A DNA stretch of 14,231 bases from Aquabacterium sp. (GTDB taxonomy: Bacteria; Pseudomonadota; Gammaproteobacteria; Burkholderiales; Burkholderiaceae_C). Under the pieces are notes generated by a model. The model made no database searches. It was not told where the DNA came from and saw only the letters and a list, made by a program, of their open reading frames with translations. The stretch lies in assembly GCA_017989885.1 (NCBI GenBank), contig JAGNPA010000011.1:1-14231 (forward strand), in the 5' to 3' direction. Made by a program: the position numbers and the translations under genes. The stretch's first letter is position 1; each line of letters opens with the position of its first letter. Positions 4,757 through 13,296 of the stretch are shown piece after piece.

Positions 4757-6613
4757 ATGACTGCTGCAGTACAGGTGAATGCACCTGCTTACGTCAAAAA
4801 CACCAAGCTGATCGCCTGGGTGGCCGAAATCGCCGCCCTGACCCAGCCCAAGGACATCGTCTGGTGTGACGGTTCGACCGAAGAGTACGACCGCCTGTGC
4901 GCCCAGCTCGTGGCCGCCGGCTCGTTCAAGAAGCTCAACCCCGAGCTGCGCCCCAACTCCTACCTGGCCTGGACCCACCCGTCCGACGTGGCCCGCGTGG
5001 AAGACCGCACCTTCATCTGCGCCGAGCGCAAGGAAGATGCCGGCCCCACCAACAACTGGTGTGAGCCCGCCGAAATGCGCGCCAAGCTGCAAACCGGTGA
5101 AGACGCCCTGTTCAAGGGCTGCATGAAGGGTCGCACGATGTACGTGATCCCCTTCTCGATGGGCCCGCTGGGCTCGAACATCGCCCACATCGGCGTCGAG
5201 CTGTCTGACTCGGCCTATGTCGCCGTCAACATGAAGCTCATGACCCGCATGGGCAAGGGCGTGATCGACGTGCTGGGCACCGATGGCGAGTTCGTGCCCT
5301 GCGTGCACACCGTGGGCGCCCCGCTGGAAGCCGGTCAGCAAGACTCGGCCTGGCCGTGCAACCCTGACACCAAGTACATCGTCCACTACCCCACGACCCG
5401 CGAAATCTGGTCCTACGGTTCGGGCTACGGCGGCAACGCGCTGCTGGGCAAGAAGTGCTTCGCACTGCGCATCGCCTCCACGATGGGCCGTGACCAGGGC
5501 TGGCTGGCCGAGCACATGCTGCTGCTGGGCGTGACCAACCCCGAAGGCCAGAAGTACCACGTCGCTGCTGCCTTCCCCTCGGCCTGCGGCAAGACCAACT
5601 TCTCCATGCTGATCCCGCCCGAGGGCTACAACGGCTGGAAGGTCACCACCATCGGTGACGACATCGCCTGGATCAAGCCCGGTGCCGACGGCAAGCTGTA
5701 CGCCATCAACCCCGAAGCCGGTTACTTCGGCGTGGCCCCTGGCACCAACACGCTGACCAACTTCAACTGCATGAAGTCGCTCGACCGTGACGTGATCTTC
5801 ACGAACGTGGCCCTGACCGACGACGGCGACGTGTGGTGGGAGTCGATGACCGACGAGCTGCCCGCTCACCTGGTCGACTGGCAAGGCAATGACTGGACCC
5901 CGGCGATTGCCAAGGAAAAGGGCACCAAGGCCGCGCACCCGAACGCCCGCTTCACCGTCTCGGCCATCAACAACCCGGCCCTGGACCCCGAGTGGGACAA
6001 CCCCGCTGGCGTGCCGATCGACGCCTTCATCTTCGGTGGCCGTCGCTCCACGACCGTGCCGCTGGTGACCGAGGCCCGTGACTGGACCGAAGGCGTCTAC
6101 ATGGCCGCCACCATGGGTTCGGAAACCACCGCCGCCGCTTTTGGCGCGCAAGGTGTCGTGCGCCGCGATCCGTTCGCCATGCTGCCCTTCATGGGCTACA
6201 ACATGAGCGACTACTTCCAGCACTGGCTGAACCTGGGCAACAAGCTGGCCGCCTCCGGCGCCCAACTGCCCAAGATCTACTGCGTGAACTGGTTCCGCAA
6301 GGGCCCCGATGGCAAGTTCGTGTGGCCGGGCTACAGCGAGAACATGCGCGTGCTGGAGTGGATGCTGGGTCGCCTGCAAGGCAAGGCCCACGGTGTCGAG
6401 AACGCCTTCGGCATCAGCCCCACCTACGAAGACATCAACTGGAATGGCCTGAACTTCACCAAGGACCAGTTCCAGTCCGTCATCGGCATCGACACCGCCG
6501 CCTGGACGCAAGAGCTCAAGCTGCACGACGAGCTGTTCACCCAGTTGGCCCACAACCTGCCGGCCGAAATGCCCGCGACCAAGGCCAAGCTGGCCCAACG
6601 TCTGGCGGCCTGA
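4757..6613 (+). CDS. pckG: Phosphoenolpyruvate carboxykinase (GTP)
   Basis: Cytosolic enzyme converting oxaloacetate and GTP to phosphoenolpyruvate, CO2 and GDP, the entry step of gluconeogenesis from TCA intermediates. At 618 residues it has full family length. The GTP-type P-loop FPSACGKTN is at 273-281 with the reactive Cys at 277. The nucleotide-contact segment [12 protein letters not shown] lies near 424-435, and the substrate-side segment [17 protein letters not shown] near 218-234. The GTP form is distinguished from the unrelated-length ATP form (pckA) by this P-loop and by size. ATG at 4757 is preceded by GGAG (4747-4750) with a six-base spacer. The gene is monocistronic: a divergent gene lies upstream, and a strong terminator with a convergent TetR gene lies downstream. 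Expression may be modulated by the leader hairpins at 4699-4738. Confidence 0.97.
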
Positions 6614-6674: not shown

Positions 6675-7340
6675 TCAGCGCGCGGTGCTGCGCAGGTCCA
6701 CCACCTCGCGGGTGATCATGGCGGCGTAGCGCTGCACCACGGCCTGAGCGTCCAGGTCGGGCTCATCGGTCAGCATTTCCTGCACCGCGTAGCCCATCTC
6801 CACGGCCAGGCGCGCGAAGGTCTGGATCTGCTTCGGATCGACGCTCGGGTAGGCGTCGACGAAAGCCTGCTCGATGAGTTGGGAGACGTGCCGGTGGGAT
6901 GCCACGCGAACCTCGTGCAGTGCCGGCACGGCGCGCAGCGCACGCATGATCCAGGCGCCCCCCGCAAACGCATCGGTCAGGGCAATGGTGTCGATGAACA
7001 AGCGCTGCAGACGCTGGTGGAACTCGGCCGGTGGTGCCGCCACGGTGGCCGGGGTCGCCCAATCGGCCAGCAGGGCGTTCTGCGCGCCCATCAAACGCTC
7101 ACCCAGGGCGTGCAGCACCGCGTACTTGTTCGGAAAGTAGCGATACAGCGCGGGGGGCGTGAGGCCGGCGCGTTCGCAGATGAGGTTGGTGGACAGGCGC
7201 TCGATGCCGACCTCGGCGAGCAACTCGGCCGTGATCGACAGGATGCGTTCGAAGGTTTCCTGCGCGCGGCCTTGACGGGGCAAGGTCTTGGTGTCCAGGT
7301 CTGGCGGGTTCGGCCGGTTGGTCGTGAGAGAGCTTGGCAT
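6675..7340 (-). CDS. TetR/AcrR-family transcriptional regulator
   Basis: One-component repressor-type protein. The N-terminal DNA-binding domain is clear: FERILSITAELLAEVGIERL is followed by the recognition helix LTPPALYRYFPNKYAVLHAL, the standard TetR layout. The C-terminal ligand and dimer domain is alpha-helical, as usual, and does not reveal the ligand. The start is uncertain. ATG at 7340 gives 221 residues, normal for the family; in-frame starts at 7367 and 7418 would add unconserved residues, and none has a clear ribosome site. It faces the ceramidase gene across a 134-base region containing a dyad (7419-7436), so it most likely controls itself and the ceramidase-cytochrome-oxidase-PLP operon. 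The ligand is unknown; a sphingoid base or fatty acyl compound is an inference from context. Confidence 0.9.
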   Translation of the reverse strand: MPSSLTTNRPNPPDLDTKTLPRQGRAQETFERILSITAELLAEVGIERLSTNLICERAGLTPPALYRYFPNKYAVLHALGERLMGAQNALLADWATPATVAAPPAEFHQRLQRLFIDTIALTDAFAGGAWIMRALRAVPALHEVRVASHRHVSQLIEQAFVDAYPSVDPKQIQTFARLAVEMGYAVQEMLTDEPDLDAQAVVQRYAAMITREVVDLRSTAR

Positions 7341-7418
7341 CTTTTGGCCCGTGATCGTTGCGGGCATTCTGGCACGCACGGCTCGGTCAGCATGGATCGC
7401 GGGTATCCACCGATGCAA

Positions 7419-7436
7419 CGATAGTGATAACTACCG
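7419..7436. promoter_or_regulatory. Candidate TetR operator in the divergent intergenic region
   Basis: CGATAGTGATAACTACCG is an 18-base dyad with 14 of 18 positions symmetric (mismatches at 3/16 and 8/11). It lies in an AT-rich patch 38 bases before the ceramidase ATG and 78 bases from the TetR start. Length, symmetry and position suit a TetR-family operator that could cover a plus-strand promoter. No clear -35/-10 pair was found here. Confidence 0.4.
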
Positions 7437-7474
7437 AACATGCGGCATCTGTGCAACCCTGAGGAGCCGATGTC

Positions 7475-9556
7475 ATGCGTCATTTTTTGCCTTTCGTACG
7501 GCGCGCGCGCGTTGTCATGTCGGCCGGTGCCATCGCTCTGGCTGGGTGGGCATCGACCCCGGCCTGGGCCGGCGAGTTTTTGATCGGCACGGGGGTGTAC
7601 GACATCACAGGTCCCGCGGCTGAAACGGGGATGTTCGGCTACGCCGCGCAGCAGGAGGTCAACGGCCTGCACCAGCGCCTGCGCGCCCGGGCCTTCATCA
7701 TGCAGGGTGCCCAGGGCGGCCCGCGCGCGGTGTTCGTGAACGTTGATCTGGGGGCGGCGCACGAGTCACTGAAGCTGGCCGTGATCCAGCGCCTGCAAGC
7801 CCGCTATGGCGCGCTCTATGGTCACGAGAACGTGATGATCTCGGCCACCCATACCCACGTGGGCAGCGGCGGGCACGCGCACCACACGCTCTACATCATC
7901 GCGGCGGCCGACAAGAGCGGGATTGGCTACGACGCCCAGAGCTTCGAGGCGGCAGTGGGCGGCATCGTGGCCGCCATCGAGCGGGCGCACCGCAATCTGG
8001 CGCCGGGACGCATTGAGCTGGTGGAGGGCAGTTTGCTGGGGGCCACGCGCAACCGCTCCCTGCCGGCGTTCCGCGCCAATCCGGATGCGGCCGCCTTGGC
8101 GCACGACACGAACAAGGCCATGACGGTGCTCAAGTTCCGCAAGGACAATGGGCGCGAGGTCGGCATGCTGAACTGGTATGCCATCCACCCGACCAGCTTC
8201 AGCCTGAAGTTCACCCACATCAGTGGCGATAACAAGGGCTACGCGTCCCAGTTCTTCGAGCGACGCAAGGGGGCGAACTACAGTGCCTCCGAAACCTTTG
8301 TGGCGGCTTTTGCCAATGCCGATGAGGGCGACGTGGTCCCCACCGATGGCAACGCGTATTCGGCGCCGGGCTACGAGGGATCGGGCAACGAGTACGCCAA
8401 TGCCGAGGCGGCGGGCCAGCGTCAACTCCACAAGGCCTGGGAGCTGTACGCCACCCCCGGCCGCGTCCAGCCTGGCGTGATCAACGTGCGCCACCAATGG
8501 GTGACGATGCCGGGCCTGGTCGTGTCGCCCGCCTACAGCCAGCCTGGCGGTGCCGTGCTGTGCACGGCGGCACGCGGGGTGTCCTTTGCGGCGGGGGGCG
8601 AAAACGGACCGTCCAACATCCCCGGCATCACCGAGGGCATGACGACGAGCAGCGCCCAGTTGGGCACGGCCCTGCAGACGTTTGCCAACTCAGCGCTGGG
8701 CGGCCTGGTGCAGACGGCCTTCTTCGGGATCTCGTCGGTGGTCAGTGACCCTTGTCAGTCGCCCAAGCCCACCTTGCTGCCCACCGGGGCGCTGGACTGG
8801 GTGCCCTCGGTGCTGCCCATTCAGGTGATCCAGGTGGGCGCGCTGGCCATCGTCGGGCTGCCCTTCGAGCCGACGACGATGGTGGGCCATCGCTTGCGCG
8901 CGCAGGTGCGCCAGCAACTGGCTGCCAAGGGGGTCGACACGGTGGTGGTGGCGGGTTTGTCCAACAGCTACGCCGGCTACCTGACCACCCGTGAGGAGTT
9001 CGAGATGCAGCACTATGAAGGCGCCTCCAACGAGTTTGGTCCGTGGACGCTGGGTGCCGTCCAGCAGACCGTGGCGCACCTGACGCAAGCCATGGTCAGC
9101 GGCGCGGCGGTCGAGCCGGGCGTGCCACCACGTGACCGGACGTCAGCACTGCGCCTGACCCGACCGGGCGTGGTTTTCGATGACAAGCCGCTCAAAGAGA
9201 GCTTTGGCAAGGTGCTCCAGGATGCCCTGCCGGCCTATCAGCCGGGGCAGGTGGTGCAGGCGAGCTTTCGCAGTGGCCACCCCAAGAACCATCTCAAGAC
9301 TCAGGACAGTTTTTTGCGCGTGGAGCGCTGGCAGGACGGGCAATGGGTCGCCGTGGCCCAGGACTGGGACTGGGAGACCAGCTACCAATGGCGCCGCGAG
9401 GGGCTGGCCTATTCAGTGGTGGACGTCGTGTGGCGCATCCCCGCCGGGACGCCTGCAGGCAGCTACCGCCTGCGTCACGACGGGCACTGGAAGAACGGCT
9501 GGACGCGGGCCATCAGCGCCTACACGGGCGTGAGCCGCACCTTCCGGGTGGATTGA
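7475..9556 (+). CDS. Neutral/alkaline ceramidase family protein, exported, with substituted catalytic Ser
   Basis: Neutral ceramidases split ceramide into a sphingoid base and a fatty acid using an active-site zinc. The 693-residue protein has a Sec signal peptide with a likely cut after AWA (33), an N-terminal catalytic domain and, from about 560, the C-terminal immunoglobulin-like domain. Zinc-site regions are kept: ATHTHVGSGG (H126/H128), NWYAIHPTS (H238), GLPFEPTTM (E465) and SNSYAGYLTTREEF (Tyr 499/502). The NRS motif with R194 is also kept. The family hexapeptide GDVSPN, whose Ser is essential in human and Pseudomonas enzymes, here reads GDVVPT (285-290; V288 at 8336-8338). Amidase activity on ceramide is therefore questionable although the fold and metal site look sound. 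GAGGAG at 7461-7466 supports the start. First gene of a four-gene operon. Confidence 0.9.
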   Translation: MRHFLPFVRRARVVMSAGAIALAGWASTPAWAGEFLIGTGVYDITGPAAETGMFGYAAQQEVNGLHQRLRARAFIMQGAQGGPRAVFVNVDLGAAHESLKLAVIQRLQARYGALYGHENVMISATHTHVGSGGHAHHTLYIIAAADKSGIGYDAQSFEAAVGGIVAAIERAHRNLAPGRIELVEGSLLGATRNRSLPAFRANPDAAALAHDTNKAMTVLKFRKDNGREVGMLNWYAIHPTSFSLKFTHISGDNKGYASQFFERRKGANYSASETFVAAFANADEGDVVPTDGNAYSAPGYEGSGNEYANAEAAGQRQLHKAWELYATPGRVQPGVINVRHQWVTMPGLVVSPAYSQPGGAVLCTAARGVSFAAGGENGPSNIPGITEGMTTSSAQLGTALQTFANSALGGLVQTAFFGISSVVSDPCQSPKPTLLPTGALDWVPSVLPIQVIQVGALAIVGLPFEPTTMVGHRLRAQVRQQLAAKGVDTVVVAGLSNSYAGYLTTREEFEMQHYEGASNEFGPWTLGAVQQTVAHLTQAMVSGAAVEPGVPPRDRTSALRLTRPGVVFDDKPLKESFGKVLQDALPAYQPGQVVQASFRSGHPKNHLKTQDSFLRVERWQDGQWVAVAQDWDWETSYQWRREGLAYSVVDVVWRIPAGTPAGSYRLRHDGHWKNGWTRAISAYTGVSRTFRVD

Positions 9557-9573
9557 GAGGCAGGAGCGCGTTG

Positions 9574-9981
9574 GTGAAGTCATGGTGTACCGCGCGGGGG
9601 CATCGGCCCCTGCTGAGCCGATGGGTAGGCTGGTGGGTCGGTGTGGGGGTGGCGTGGTCCGTGGGCTTGAGTGGGTGCGGTGAGCCGACCCCGGCGCCGC
9701 CCACAGATGCGGAAGTGTTGGCCGCAGAGCGGCTGCGCCCGACGCGGCCCGAGTTGGCGGCCGTGTACGAGCGCAGCTGTCTGGCCTGCCACGGTGTGCG
9801 CAGCGCCGCTCCGCTGACGGGCCATGCCCCGTCGTGGCGCGCGCGCCTGCAGCAGGGCCCGGACGTGCTGCTGTCCCACACCCGCGAGGGCCTGCGCGGC
9901 ATGCCCGCCATGGGCCTGTGCCCCGATTGCAGCGACGACGAACTGCAAGATCTGATCACCTTCATGAGCACGCCGCGATGA
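9574..9981 (+). CDS. Lipoprotein monohaem cytochrome c (SphD-like)
   Basis: A 135-residue class I cytochrome c, probably anchored to a membrane on the periplasmic side. The leader ends in the lipobox LSGC (32-35). Haem attaches at CLACH (69-73), and the distal Met is in GMPAMG (M110 or M113). CPDC (116-119) followed by SDDEL resembles the cytochrome c5 type with a disulfide next to the Met loop. The GTG start at 9574 has CAGGAG (9561-9566) seven bases upstream; TTG at 9571 is an alternative. It lies 17 bases after the ceramidase stop, and its stop overlaps the next start (ATGA), so it should pass electrons from the neighbouring FAD oxidase to the respiratory chain. The same trio, as recalled, forms P. 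aeruginosa sphDCB for sphingosine use. Confidence 0.85.
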   Translation: MKSWCTARGHRPLLSRWVGWWVGVGVAWSVGLSGCGEPTPAPPTDAEVLAAERLRPTRPELAAVYERSCLACHGVRSAAPLTGHAPSWRARLQQGPDVLLSHTREGLRGMPAMGLCPDCSDDELQDLITFMSTPR

Positions 9982-11393
9982 GCCGACCTCACCTGAATCG
10001 CCGACAGCTGCTTGGTGGCGCCGCCGCACTGGGCCTTGTCGACGCCCTGCGGGGTGGGACCCTGGCGCAGTGGATGAGCAGCGATGCCCATGCGCAAACG
10101 ACCCCACGCGCGCCTGCGCCAACGCGCCGCTGGCAGAACTGGTCCGGCCTGCAGCAGGCCACGCCCGCCACCTGGGCTGCACCGGCCCACGAGGCCGAGT
10201 TGCAGCAACTCCTGCGGCGCACGCGCGGTGAGGTGCGCGCGGTCGGCGCCGGCCACTCCTTCACGGCGCTGGTGCCCACCGACCAGACCCTGGTGTCCCT
10301 CGACCGCCTCCATGGCATCGTCTCGATCGACCGGGCCGCGATGACCGTGACCGCGCACGCTGGCACCCGCATCGGCGCGCTGGCCAAAGCGCTGGATGCC
10401 CAAGGCCTGGCCCTGCGCAACCAGCCCGATGTGGACGTGCAGACCCTGGCCGGCGCGATCGCGACCGGCACGCATGGCACGGGCGCCGCCTTGCCTGCGC
10501 TGCATGACGAGGTTGTGGCGATGCGTCTGGTGCGCCCTGACGGGGAGGTCGTCGAGATCGACGCCCGCCGCGACCCGGATCTCATGGCGGCGGCGCGCGT
10601 GTCGCTGGGCAGTCTGGGTTTGATCACCCGCGTGACGATGCGCGTGGTGCCTGCCTATCACCTGGCACGCCACGTCTGGCTGATGCCCCTGGCGCAGGTG
10701 CTGACCGAGGCGCTTGAGCTGGCGCGGCGCCATCGTCATTTCGAGTTCTACGTGCTGCCCTTCACCGGCTACGCCGCCTGCATCCGCCTGGACCCTTACC
10801 AAGGCTCGGATCTGAGCCTGCCCAACTCGGCTGACGAGGACGTGCTCGGCGATCTCAAGCAGTTGCGTGACTGGCTGGGCCGTTTCCCTCGCCTGCGCCG
10901 CTGGGCAGCCCAGCAGCTCATCGATCCCCAGCTGACCGAATCGGCCCGTCATCGCTCCCACCGCCTGTTGTCCTCGGTGCGTCCCACCCGTTTTCAGGAA
11001 ACCGAGTGGCATGTGCCGCGTGAGCGGGGGCTGGCCTGCCTGCGTGCAGTGGTTGACCGACTGGAGCAGCACAACGAGGCCTTCTTTCCGCTGGAGTTCC
11101 GCTTCGTCCAGGGCGACGGGGCCTGGCTCAGCCCCTTCCATGGCCGTGACAGCTGCTCGATCGCGGTGCATGCCGCCGCCGATGAAGCCTGGGACTATCT
11201 GATCGACGATTTCACGCCCATTTTCCGCGCGCACCAGGGGCGCCCCCACTGGGGCAAGCTGCACCGCCTGGGCGCCGTCGACCTGGCACCGCTCTACCCT
11301 CGCTGGGCCGATTTCGCCGCCGTGCGCCAGCGCTTCGACCCGCAAGGCCGCCTGCTCAACGCCCACCTGCGTCAGGTGTTCGGCATCACCTGA
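9978..11393 (+). CDS. Tat-exported FAD oxidoreductase, D-arabinono-1,4-lactone oxidase family (SphC-like)
   Basis: A VAO-type flavoprotein oxidising an alcohol or lactone, here probably a dehydrogenase reducing the adjacent cytochrome c. The start at 9978 overlaps the cytochrome stop. The twin-arginine signal LNRRQLLGG (6-14) has a likely cut after AHA (39), consistent with export of a folded flavoprotein. GAGHSFTALVPT (90-101) includes H93, the position that carries covalent FAD in alditol-oxidase relatives. GTHGTG (164-169) is the second FAD segment. HWGK (424-427) near the C-terminus is characteristic of the ALO domain. The 471 residues match the family. Annotation as a lactone oxidase is by family only. 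The operon and recalled SphC similarity point to the C1 hydroxyl of a sphingoid base as substrate, which is an inference. Confidence 0.88.
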   Translation: MSRPHLNRRQLLGGAAALGLVDALRGGTLAQWMSSDAHAQTTPRAPAPTRRWQNWSGLQQATPATWAAPAHEAELQQLLRRTRGEVRAVGAGHSFTALVPTDQTLVSLDRLHGIVSIDRAAMTVTAHAGTRIGALAKALDAQGLALRNQPDVDVQTLAGAIATGTHGTGAALPALHDEVVAMRLVRPDGEVVEIDARRDPDLMAAARVSLGSLGLITRVTMRVVPAYHLARHVWLMPLAQVLTEALELARRHRHFEFYVLPFTGYAACIRLDPYQGSDLSLPNSADEDVLGDLKQLRDWLGRFPRLRRWAAQQLIDPQLTESARHRSHRLLSSVRPTRFQETEWHVPRERGLACLRAVVDRLEQHNEAFFPLEFRFVQGDGAWLSPFHGRDSCSIAVHAAADEAWDYLIDDFTPIFRAHQGRPHWGKLHRLGAVDLAPLYPRWADFAAVRQRFDPQGRLLNAHLRQVFGIT

Positions 11394-11403
11394 GGGCCTG
11401 CAG

Positions 11404-12684
11404 ATGCCGAACTGGACACGTCGACGCTGGCTGGGTGCTGCGGCCTTGGGGGGCGGCGCTGCGGTCTGGGCCCTGCGCCCCGGGGAGACCGGCGCCCCCC
11501 ATGCCGCGCGCTTCCAGGTCTTGACCCGTGCCCTGCGTCAGGCTGGGCTCACTCAGCCCACGCTGGTGCTCGACCGCGCGCAACTGCAGGCCAATGCCCG
11601 CCAGGTGCGCGCCAACCTCGATGCGGCCCTGGCCCTGCGCCTGGTGAACAAATCCTTGCCCTGCCTGCCCCTGCTCGATGAGTTGGCCACTCTCCTGGCC
11701 ACGGAGCGGCAGATGGTGTTCAACCTGCCCTACCTGCAACTGCTGGCCGAGCAGCGGCCGCGCAGCGAGGTGCTGCTGGGCAAGCCTTTCCCAGTGGCCG
11801 CTGCGGCGCACTTCCTCGCACAGCCCCCTCGCAGTGGCTTCGATCCCGTTCGTCAGGTGCAGTGGCTGGTGGACACGCCCGAGCGCCTCGCCCAGTACCG
11901 CGAACTGGCCCGCCAGCGCCGGCAGGTGCTGCGCATCAACCTTGAAATCGACGTGGGCCTGCACCGCGGCGGTCTGCCCGACGAGGCGGCGCTGCGCGAG
12001 GTCATCGGGCTGTTGCAAGGCGAGCCCTGGCTGCAATGGTCCGGGCTCATGGGCTACGACGCCCACACGGAAAAAATCCCCGACGTCGGTGGCTTGCGCG
12101 CCGAGGTGCGGGCCCAGGTGCAGCAGCGCTACCGCAGCTGCCTGGACACGGTGCAGGCCAGCCCGCTGGCCCGCGACCGTGCGCTGCTGACGCTCAACAC
12201 GGGTGGCTCTCCCACCTACCGCCTGCACCGCGCGGTGGGCGCAGCCAACGAGGTGGCGGTGGGCTCGGCCCTGGTCAAACCCAGCGACTTCGACACGCCC
12301 CTGCTGGCCGATCTGCAACCCGCCGTCTGGATCGCCACGCCGGTGCTCAAGGTGGCCGCCTGGCGTGCGCCCGACGGGGTAGGGGCCCTGGGCACGTTGC
12401 TGCGTGGCTGGGACCGTAACCAGCGGGTGGCCCATTTCATCCACGGCGGTCACTGGCTGGCGCAGCCTGACTCGCCCGTGGGCCTGCAAGCCAGCGCCCT
12501 GATCGGGGCCTCGTCCAACCAGCAGCTCTACCTGGGCTCGGGTCGGCAGGGCCTGCAGCCCGACGACCTCGTCTTCTTTCGTCCCACGCAGAGCGAGTCG
12601 GTGCTCCAGCAGTTCGGTGACATCGCCGTGGTCGAGGGTGACCGCGTCGTGGCGATGTGGCCCGTCTTCCCCGCCCGCGCGTGA
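11404..12684 (+). CDS. Tat-exported fold-type III PLP enzyme, DSD1/D-threonine aldolase-like (SphB-like)
   Basis: Belongs to the alanine-racemase-fold group that includes D-threonine aldolase and D-serine dehydratase, acting on D-beta-hydroxy amino acids. It starts with TRRRWLGAAALGGG (5-18), a twin-arginine export signal unusual for a PLP enzyme. PTLVLDRAQL (52-61) opens the barrel, K83 in LVNKS is the expected PLP Lys, EIDVGLHRGG (181-190) is a barrel strand motif, and TGGSPTY (266-272) should hold the PLP phosphate. The C-terminus ends WPVFPARA, whereas metal-dependent relatives have Pro-x-His-x-Cys/Asp there, so those metal ligands appear missing. GAGGG (11392-11396) overlaps the upstream stop and suits ATG at 11404. 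The ten-base gap to the oxidase gene supports one transcript. Retro-aldol, dehydratase or racemase activity cannot be decided from sequence. Confidence 0.82.
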   Translation: MPNWTRRRWLGAAALGGGAAVWALRPGETGAPHAARFQVLTRALRQAGLTQPTLVLDRAQLQANARQVRANLDAALALRLVNKSLPCLPLLDELATLLATERQMVFNLPYLQLLAEQRPRSEVLLGKPFPVAAAAHFLAQPPRSGFDPVRQVQWLVDTPERLAQYRELARQRRQVLRINLEIDVGLHRGGLPDEAALREVIGLLQGEPWLQWSGLMGYDAHTEKIPDVGGLRAEVRAQVQQRYRSCLDTVQASPLARDRALLTLNTGGSPTYRLHRAVGAANEVAVGSALVKPSDFDTPLLADLQPAVWIATPVLKVAAWRAPDGVGALGTLLRGWDRNQRVAHFIHGGHWLAQPDSPVGLQASALIGASSNQQLYLGSGRQGLQPDDLVFFRPTQSESVLQQFGDIAVVEGDRVVAMWPVFPARA

Positions 12685-12697
12685 GCGGCGCCCAGCC

Positions 12698-13279
12698 TCA
12701 GTCCGGCGACCACACCTGTACTTCGGTCACGACCGCCATCAGCGGCAGGTCGTGTGCTTGCGGCGCCAGCTCCTCGCGGCTCAGGCGCGCCTGTTCCCAG
12801 GCCACGCCGATCACGGTCACGCCGGGGTGGGCGGCCAGGTAGCGGTCGAAATAGCCGCCGCCATAGCCCAGGCGGAAGCCCTCGGGCGTGAAGCCCACGC
12901 AGGGTACCAGCACCACGTCGGGCACCACCGGTTTGCCCGCCGGGCTGGGCAGACCGCATTCGTCCACGCTGCTCAGCTCGCCGCCATCCCAGGGGCGAAA
13001 GTGCATGGCCACCGGCTCGCGCTGGGCAAAAGGCAGGGCCAGGCGGCAATCCCACTGCGCCTGGGCTCGCAAGGCCAGCGTCCTTGGGTTAAATTCCCCC
13101 TTCATGGGCCAGTACACCCCCAGGCCATCGGGCTCCAGCTGCGCGAGCACGTCCAGCAGTCGCTGTTCAAGTTGCACTTGCGCGGCTTCGCCCGCAGGCG
13201 TGGCACACCAGGCTTGATGCGCGGCCAGCAGGCGGCGGCGCAGGGCGGGGCGATCGAGGGTCGGTTCGGGTGAAGTCAT
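12698..13279 (-). CDS. fau: 5-formyltetrahydrofolate cyclo-ligase (MTHFS)
   Basis: Converts 5-formyl-THF to 5,10-methenyl-THF with ATP in the cytoplasm, returning a stalled folate to one-carbon metabolism. The diagnostic C-terminal motif GYGGGYFDRYLA (139-150, counted from GTG 13282) follows VPCVGFTPEGFRL. KGEFNPRTL (61-69) matches the substrate-side segment of the family. The 193 to 194 residues are the usual size. ATG at 13279 and GTG at 13282 are adjacent start candidates without a clear ribosome site. It converges with the PLP enzyme gene across 13 bases and diverges from the transglycosylase gene, whose start lies within 20 bases, so its promoter must sit inside that neighbouring coding sequence. 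Confidence 0.93.
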   Translation of the reverse strand: MTSPEPTLDRPALRRRLLAAHQAWCATPAGEAAQVQLEQRLLDVLAQLEPDGLGVYWPMKGEFNPRTLALRAQAQWDCRLALPFAQREPVAMHFRPWDGGELSSVDECGLPSPAGKPVVPDVVLVPCVGFTPEGFRLGYGGGYFDRYLAAHPGVTVIGVAWEQARLSREELAPQAHDLPLMAVVTEVQVWSPD

Positions 13280-13296
13280 CACAGAGAGTCATTCCA

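What the first reader, a model, noticed from the sequence alone, without database searches (positions are those of the whole stretch)
7475..12684. Four-gene periplasmic operon that looks like a complete sphingolipid breakdown route
Seen: ceramidase-family gene, then after 17 bases a lipoprotein cytochrome c, then by ATGA overlap a Tat FAD oxidase, then after 10 bases a Tat fold-III PLP enzyme, all exported. Known (from memory): P. aeruginosa sphBCD (PA5326-PA5328) encodes the same cytochrome/oxidoreductase/PLP trio and is induced by sphingosine together with the separately located ceramidase gene cerN. Inferred: here the ceramidase and the oxidation genes are fused into one unit that turns ceramide into glycine or ammonia plus a fatty aldehyde or oxo-acid outside the cytoplasm, with electrons going to cytochrome c. 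The linkage and the different regulator are the new parts.
Basis: partly seen in the sequence, partly recalled or inferred. Interest (0 to 1): 0.78.

Follow-up and report, generated by a model that had tools for sequence, protein, structure and literature searches.

The report
Sphingolipid-breakdown operon under TetR operator
An environmental bacterium carries, in one operon of exported enzymes, a ceramide-cutting enzyme and relatives of the three genes that Pseudomonas uses against sphingosine, and a shared DNA switch found in relatives suggests that these genes belong together even where they lie apart in the genome.

Summary
The last three are 47, 40 and 43% identical to P. aeruginosa SphB, SphC, SphD, in the same order. 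Relatives add three things. (1) In a 299-genome family sample all 6 ceramidase genomes also have a strong sphD; 5 have both on one contig, in differing orders and with two ceramidase subfamilies. (2) The divergent TetR gene has orthologues within 12 kb of sphD in 17 genomes, own included. (3) A palindrome, TAGYNATNRCTA, at 7422-7433, occurs once in the 2.27 Mb genome held, and in two relatives before both sph genes and ceramidase, one with the two unlinked. So ceramidase and sph genes look like one TetR regulon. Not shown: the chemistry. SphD has the D-threonine-aldolase fold but lacks its metal and base residues; the ceramidase lacks the usual active-site Ser/Thr. The linkage recurs in Massilia, Rhodoferax and other Aquabacterium. 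New variant of a known system.

The parts
6675..7418 (-). TetR-family regulator (called TetR1 here), divergent from the operon; longest ORF starts at TTG 7418, the conserved part suggests a start at ATG 7367 or 7340
   Evidence: TetR_N in Pfam; orthologues in 33 of 299 family genomes, 17 of them within 12 kb of sphD; alignment A7
7422..7433 (.). predicted operator, palindrome TAGTGATAACTA, 41 bases before the ceramidase ATG
   Evidence: only exact site in the genome held; same palindrome before ceramidase and sph genes in relatives
7475..9556 (+). exported neutral ceramidase homologue (subfamily with Val288 where the human enzyme has Ser354)
   Evidence: Pfam; PDB 2zws and 4wgk; zinc-site residues and Val288; tree
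9574..9981 (+). lipoprotein cytochrome c, SphB homologue (47% over 100 residues)
9978..11393 (+). FAD oxidoreductase of the ALO family with twin-arginine start, SphC homologue (40%)
11404..12684 (+). exported fold-III PLP enzyme, SphD homologue (43%), D-threonine-aldolase fold

Best explanation
It is an exported route that takes ceramide-type lipids and gets rid of the resulting sphingoid base. Step 1 (by homology): the ceramidase splits the amide bond, giving a fatty acid and a sphingoid base. Step 2 (by homology to a genetically tested pair): the FAD protein SphC oxidises the sphingoid base in the periplasm and hands the electrons to the lipoprotein cytochrome SphB and so to the respiratory chain. 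Inference: the C1 alcohol is oxidised, as the related alditol oxidase does with terminal alcohols. Step 3 (inference, weak): SphD acts on the oxidised product; oxidation of C1 of D-erythro-sphingosine (2S,3R) would give a (2R,3R) 2-amino-3-hydroxy acid, which has the D configuration that fold-III aldolases and dehydratases take. Control (supported by sequence comparison, not by experiment): the divergent TetR protein represses the operon at TAGTGATAACTA, 7422-7433; inference: a sphingoid base or ceramide product releases it. It would do the job that the AraC protein SphR does in P. aeruginosa.
For: Trio identity and order to P. aeruginosa sphBCD: 47/40/43%. In P. aeruginosa sphBC are needed for sphingosine loss (PMC11893366), and cerN and sphBCD are in one sphingosine regulon (PMC3900636, PMC5150637, passages). 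Co-occurrence: 6 of 6 ceramidase genomes are among the 28 of 299 with strong sphD (hypergeometric 4e-7); 5 of 6 on one contig, gaps 0.1-8.5 kb, in differing orders. TetR1 orthologue in 33 of 299, 19 shared with the 28 (7e-15), 17 within 12 kb. Operator: all 7 exact sites in the three sampled genomes that hold both TetR1 and a ceramidase (own 1, Albitalea 4, Rhodoferax MAG 2) lie before the ceramidase or sph genes. Gatekeeper residue beside the flavin is Pro or Ala in 15 of 15 aligned SphC with a cytochrome gene alongside, Gly in 11 of 15 aligned relatives without one; Ala at this place limits O2 reaction in GalDH (PMC11099136).
Against: No experiment on these genes. The ceramidase has Val at the human Ser354 place and scores 388 bits against a 1200-bit cut-off for NCBIfam's neutral ceramidase. 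SphC's relatives include ALO proteins without sph neighbours that have the same active-site Asp and Glu, so the substrate cannot be read from residues. In PMC11893366 C. crescentus SphBC (44 and 42% identical to P. aeruginosa) gave only a non-significant trend of complementation, and deleting sphBC in P. fluorescens WCS365 had no phenotype, so having the genes does not prove the role. SphD lacks the D-threonine aldolase metal His and base. No SphA or SphR homologue in the window. The backward control pattern hits 37 times in the 12 genomes against 25 for the operator, and 2 against 1 in the own genome, so placement, not number, is the evidence. Four of 19 TetR1 loci lack an exact site, and 5 of 19 sites in eight other genomes lie away from these genes. 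Four SphC with no cytochrome alongside still have Pro at the gatekeeper.
Confidence: 0.75

Rival explanations
1. The operon handles another N-acylated amino alcohol or amino lipid, not ceramide and sphingoid bases; similar chemistry, another substrate.
For: The window ceramidase is in a clade (16 rows, 14 distinct loci, support 0.998) with Val or Leu at the Ser354 place; SphC relatives without sph neighbours share its active-site residues; in several genomes the trio or sphCD sits with a TonB receptor and no ceramidase is found in the genome.
Against: Ceramidases with Ser or Thr at that place occupy the same neighbourhood beside the same trio in Massilia, Rhodoferax and Aquabacterium; zinc-site residues are kept in 89 of 89 rows; the trio's only tested role that I found is with sphingoid bases.
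Confidence: 0.17
2. The trio is a sugar, lactone or polyol oxidation unit that happens to lie next to a ceramidase gene.
For: Closest solved relatives of SphC are alditol oxidase and galactonolactone dehydrogenase; NCBIfam TIGR01679 is a general subfamily.
Against: P. aeruginosa SphC is in the same TIGR01679 subfamily (468 bits) and is needed for sphingosine loss (PMC11893366); repeated linkage and the shared operator are not expected of chance neighbours.
Confidence: 0.05
3. It is mainly a defence against toxic sphingoid bases in the surroundings, not a way to use them as food (a variant of the best explanation that differs in purpose, so its odds overlap with it).
For: [quoted passage not shown] I saw no gene in the window that would use the aldehyde or acid inside the cell.
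Against: A ceramidase makes the toxic base, which points to use of ceramide with disposal of the base; TonB receptors and outer-membrane proteins accompany the trio in relatives.
Confidence: 0.35

Closest known systems
P. aeruginosa SphR regulon: sphA, sphBCD, cerN (PA5325-PA5328, PA0845)
   Same: Same cytochrome / FAD protein / PLP protein in the same order (47/40/43%), with a ceramidase under the same control (PMC3900636, PMC5150637 passages)
   Different: Ceramidase is in the operon and from another subfamily; regulator is TetR with a TAGYNATNRCTA site instead of AraC SphR; no sphA in the window
Neutral ceramidases of P. aeruginosa (2zws) and man (4wgk)
   Same: Whole-length similarity (430 and 358 bits), zinc-site residues and the pocket Arg kept
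   Different: Val288 where human has Ser354 and 72 of 89 aligned rows have Ser or Thr; separate clade
Alditol oxidase (2vfr, 8ot8) and L-galactonolactone dehydrogenase
   Same: ALO fold family, FAD-linking His (oxidase), Glu/Arg/Lys of the active site
   Different: Asp151 for the Ser that binds flavin N5, Glu341 for Gln295; Pro150 at the gatekeeper; cytochrome gene alongside
D-threonine aldolase / D-3-hydroxyaspartate aldolase (4v15, 7yqa, 6qkb)
   Different: Metal His347 is Gln, Lys or His; metal Asp349 is Glu; base His193 not kept

Membership tests
sphBCD (sphingosine oxidation) system | Lipoprotein c-type cytochrome, exported ALO-family FAD protein, fold-III PLP protein, adjacent in this order | tested here: met
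sphBCD (sphingosine oxidation) system | Mutual best similarity to P. aeruginosa SphB, SphC, SphD | tested here: inconclusive
   Among the five P. aeruginosa proteins each window protein finds its namesake only, and the genome held has one ALO and one SphD match; the search back against a whole P. aeruginosa genome was not run
sphBCD (sphingosine oxidation) system | Induced by sphingosine and needed for its loss | not testable with these tools
   needs expression and deletion work
SphR regulon | AraC-type SphR next to the genes | tested here: not met
   No SphR hit in the window; TetR instead, with its own site. The rest of the genome was not searched for SphR
Neutral ceramidase (PF04734) | Full-length domain pair and zinc-site residues | tested here: met
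   (which residues bind zinc is recalled; their places were read from the alignment)
Neutral ceramidase (PF04734) | Ser (or Thr) at the human Ser354 place that steadies the pocket Arg | tested here: not met
   Val288; V, L or A in 17 of 89 rows, 15 distinct loci; role of Ser354 from PMC6952831 (passage)
Neutral ceramidase (NCBIfam NF041649 equivalog) | Score over curated cut-off 1200 | tested here: not met
   388 bits
D-threonine aldolase | Metal ligands His and Asp, base His | tested here: not met
   Gln396, Glu398, Lys224; across 22 SphD: Q19 K2 H1, E22, no His at the base place
D-threonine aldolase | Fold-III two-domain fold with PLP Lys | tested here: met
ALO-family dehydrogenase (not an O2-using oxidase) | Non-Gly residue at the gatekeeper place next to the flavin | tested here: met
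   Pro150; that Pro acts like Ala is not shown

The most novel reading that the evidence does not exclude
In Burkholderiales a TetR repressor with the operator TAGYNATNRCTA senses sphingoid bases or ceramide products and has taken over the ceramide-to-sphingosine-disposal regulon from SphR; a second TetR type with an AACANTGTT palindrome does the same in sister lineages; and the ceramidase slot was filled twice, once by a subfamily that works without the Ser/Thr thought to hold the active site. SphC is a cytochrome-c-linked sphingoid-base dehydrogenase that makes a D-configured amino acid for an aldolase-like SphD without the usual metal site.
Probability: 0.35. Interest if true: 0.75.

Novelty: new variant of a known kind. 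Interest (0 to 1): 0.6.

Why it matters
How bacteria destroy sphingosine is an open question: in P. aeruginosa the product, and whether SphC acts on sphingosine directly, are unknown (PMC11893366). Here the enzyme that would make sphingosine and the enzymes that would remove it appear as one transcription unit, with a predicted repressor and a 12-base site, so substrate, inducer and product can be tested in one small system. It also gives a marker (operator plus TetR) for further members, such as the TonB receptors in relatives.

Tried and rejected
Charge signature of SphC: I thought that Asp151 and Glu341, in place of neutral residues of alditol oxidase, mark binding of an amino alcohol (note). 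One search shows the Asp in 9 of 10 and the Glu in 10 of 10 ALO proteins from L201-L210, which have no cytochrome alongside and no or only weak SphD hits (L201 1e-5, L206 4e-12; L201 also has an SphR-like gene, 1e-70). So these residues mark the wider subfamily, not sphingosine; rejected.

SphA: the outer-membrane protein between sphD and ceramidase in several relatives matches Gcw_chp (PF09694), and P. aeruginosa SphA found no match at 1e-3 among the 32 loci searched; a PDB profile search gave nothing meaningful.

Promoter scan of 7250-12800: no sigma-70 match (0.4 expected by chance); one terminator-like hit at 7559, inside the ceramidase gene, against 2.2 expected; not informative.

TetR fold comparison: nearest solved structures are general TetR proteins, with acyl-CoA binders DesT and FadR, and FasR, among the first 50 (TM by query length 0.55-0.65); too weak to name a ligand.

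Class-wide sample (369 genomes): 16 with a ceramidase; their neighbours were not examined.
Full report
WHAT IS THERE. Pfam names them neutral ceramidase (both domains), Cytochrome_CBB3, ALO plus FAD_binding_4, and Ala_racemase_N. Upstream and divergent is a TetR gene (6675-7418); downstream and convergent is a 5-formyltetrahydrofolate cyclo-ligase gene. The window is one whole contig (C126) of a 2.27 Mb, 75% complete genome.

THE TRIO IS SPHBCD. A plasmid record of P. aeruginosa holds cytochrome c5, ALO protein, DSD1 PLP protein, a transporter gene, sphR and argB in a row, the order given for PA5328-PA5323 in the papers. Among these five proteins (argB left out) the window's cytochrome finds only SphB (47% over 100 residues, E 7e-25), the FAD protein only SphC (40%, 1e-102) and the PLP protein only SphD (43%, 3e-100); no window product matches SphA or SphR. 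In P. aeruginosa, cultures without sphBCD keep the added sphingosine, sphB and sphC are the genes that matter, sphD was dispensable under the conditions used, and the product is unknown (PMC11893366: abstract and sections 19, 20, 22 read). Sphingosine induces sphA, sphBCD and the distant cerN through SphR (PMC3900636 and PMC5150637: passages).

LINKAGE TO CERAMIDASE IS REPEATED. In a family sample of 299 genomes, own included, PF04734 is found in 6 and a strong SphD (E 1.3e-90 or better) in 28; 59 have a hit at 0.001. All 6 ceramidase genomes are among the 28 (hypergeometric 4e-7). In 5 of 6 both lie on one contig with gaps of 0.1 to 8.5 kb; the sixth (Albitalea terrae, by its contig) has them on different contigs. 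The orders differ: ceramidase-B-C-D in the window; B-C-D-ceramidase in G241; B-C-D-outer membrane protein-ceramidase in G159; ceramidase divergent from B-C-D in G015; ceramidase, ABC transporter, LolA-like protein, another protein, B-C-D in G027. A named scan of ceramidases kept the best 80 of 556, many on short contigs; sph genes are nearby in 5 of 80: two Massilia, a Rhodoferax MAG (the same locus as G027), an Aquabacterium MAG (an sphD fragment at the contig end) and A. fontiphilum. Oleiphilus has an sphD-like gene 7 kb from a ceramidase, without an SphC hit nearby.

TWO CERAMIDASE SUBFAMILIES FILL THE SLOT. The window's ceramidase is only 43 and 42% identical to those of two genomes of the same genus, G159 and G241, although the FAD proteins there are 60 and 78% identical to the window's. 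A tree of 89 rows (four of them second copies of a locus) puts the window with Albitalea, Oleiphilus, Psychrobacter, Arcanobacterium and others in a clade of 16 rows (14 distinct; support 0.998), outside a clade of 34 rows (support 0.79) with a Pseudomonas enzyme and the other sph-linked ones. Zinc-site residues (His126, His238, Glu465, Tyr502; that these bind zinc is recalled) are kept in 89 of 89, but the place of human Ser354 is Ser in 47, Thr in 25 and Val, Leu or Ala in 17, the window being Val288 (mapping read). Ser354 is said to steady the pocket Arg257 (PMC6952831, passage), which aligns with Arg194, invariant in 18 of 18. Whether this subfamily has ceramidase activity is therefore open; its place in the regulon argues that it does.

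THE REGULATOR AND ITS SITE. TetR1 orthologues (E up to 1e-30) occur in 33 of 299 family genomes; 19 of these are among the 28 with strong SphD (7e-15), and in 17 the two genes are within 12 kb. Upstream regions of 14 TetR1 genes were listed, where I saw a palindrome by eye, then written TAGYNATNRCTA. In the window it occurs once, 7422-7433, between TetR and ceramidase; 200 shuffles gave none. It is present in 15 of 19 TetR1 loci (25 sites in 280 kb), in 0 of 9 sph loci with another TetR type, in 0 of 5 Pseudomonas, alphaproteobacterial and Eleftheria loci, and in 3 of 75 other ceramidase loci (4 sites). One of those three is Albitalea, where two copies lie about 75 and 92 bases before the probable ceramidase start; this locus was not among those, and the two Rhodoferax sites lie outside the stretch listed there. 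The other two loci have one site each, away from the ceramidase start. Genome-wide, the own genome has 1 site, Albitalea 4 (two before sphC-sphD, two before the unlinked ceramidase), the Rhodoferax MAG 2 (one before ceramidase, one within the 5' end of the longest sphB frame, ahead of its probable start). In the other eight genomes with sites, 14 of 19 sites lie by TetR1, TonB-receptor or sph genes and 5 elsewhere; the two same-genus genomes without this TetR have none. The backward control pattern gives 37 hits in the same 12 genomes against 25, and 2 against 1 in the own genome, so position, not count, carries the argument.

A SECOND REGULATOR TYPE. Sph loci of Massilia, G159, G241, G015, A. 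fontiphilum, G125 and G120 have a different TetR (TetR_C_33 where scanned), and regions next to the trio share another palindrome around AACANTGTT, seen by eye; its statistics were not tested. With SphR, three regulators would then serve the same genes.

KNOWN OR NEW. Searches of the open-licence PMC library for sphBCD, ceramidase with sph genes, TetR with sphingosine and related words list no paper on a ceramidase-sphBCD operon or a TetR regulator of it; I saw the listings only in part (20 of 23, 20 of 29, 12 of 668, 12 of 27), and most subscription papers and preprints are not held. One paper reports that a Cupriavidus strain responds to sphingosine although no gene strongly similar to sphR was found (PMC13293705, passages), which another kind of sensor might explain; I did not look in that genome.

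VERDICT. The end products, the ceramidase activity and the inducer are unproven. New variant of a known kind.

Noticed in passing
L161, L162, L183, L184, L185, L186, L193 (family genomes): A TonB-dependent receptor gene lies with the sph genes and mostly with TetR1, with the operator before it in six of these seven loci (not L193), in genomes where one search found no ceramidase: a candidate importer of a sphingolipid.
   Followed up: partly
L190, L191, L195, L196, L008, L109, L160, L157: An outer-membrane protein of family Gcw_chp (PF09694, function unknown) or its relative sits next to TetR1 or beside sphD; in L190, L191, L195, L196 with TetR1 and operator but no trio in the stretch.
   Followed up: partly
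L008, L009, L010, L108, L109, L146, L159, L160: A second TetR type next to the trio with a shared AACANTGTT-like palindrome.
   Followed up: partly
L198 3399-8182: Ruegeria pomeroyi megaplasmid: TetR, cytochrome c, ALO protein, DSD1 PLP protein, DUF819 protein in a row.
   Followed up: no
L200: P. aeruginosa plasmid p1B17416 record carries a chromosomal-type segment with rph, pyrE, sphBCD, a transporter gene, sphR and argB.
   Followed up: no
L197 4336-7054: Eleftheria terrae has sphC-sphD without a cytochrome alongside and with Gly at the gatekeeper place of SphC.
   Followed up: partly
L201 3790-9779: Burkholderia stagnalis plasmid: ALO protein with an SphR-like AraC gene a few kb away and only a weak SphD hit.
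   Followed up: no
L007 3156-7703: Rhodoferax MAG: a MacB-like ABC transporter, a LolA-like protein and a 436-aa protein without Pfam match lie between ceramidase and sphB.
   Followed up: no
L073, L156: Oleiphilus: a ceramidase of the window's subfamily lies next to an AraC gene with similarity to SphR (1.5e-20).
   Followed up: no
L098: Smithella MAG with two ceramidase genes in tandem.
   Followed up: no
window 4757-6613, 12698-13282, 1535-2158: Nearby genes are ordinary: GTP-type PEP carboxykinase, 5-formyltetrahydrofolate cyclo-ligase, MOSC protein.
   Followed up: partly
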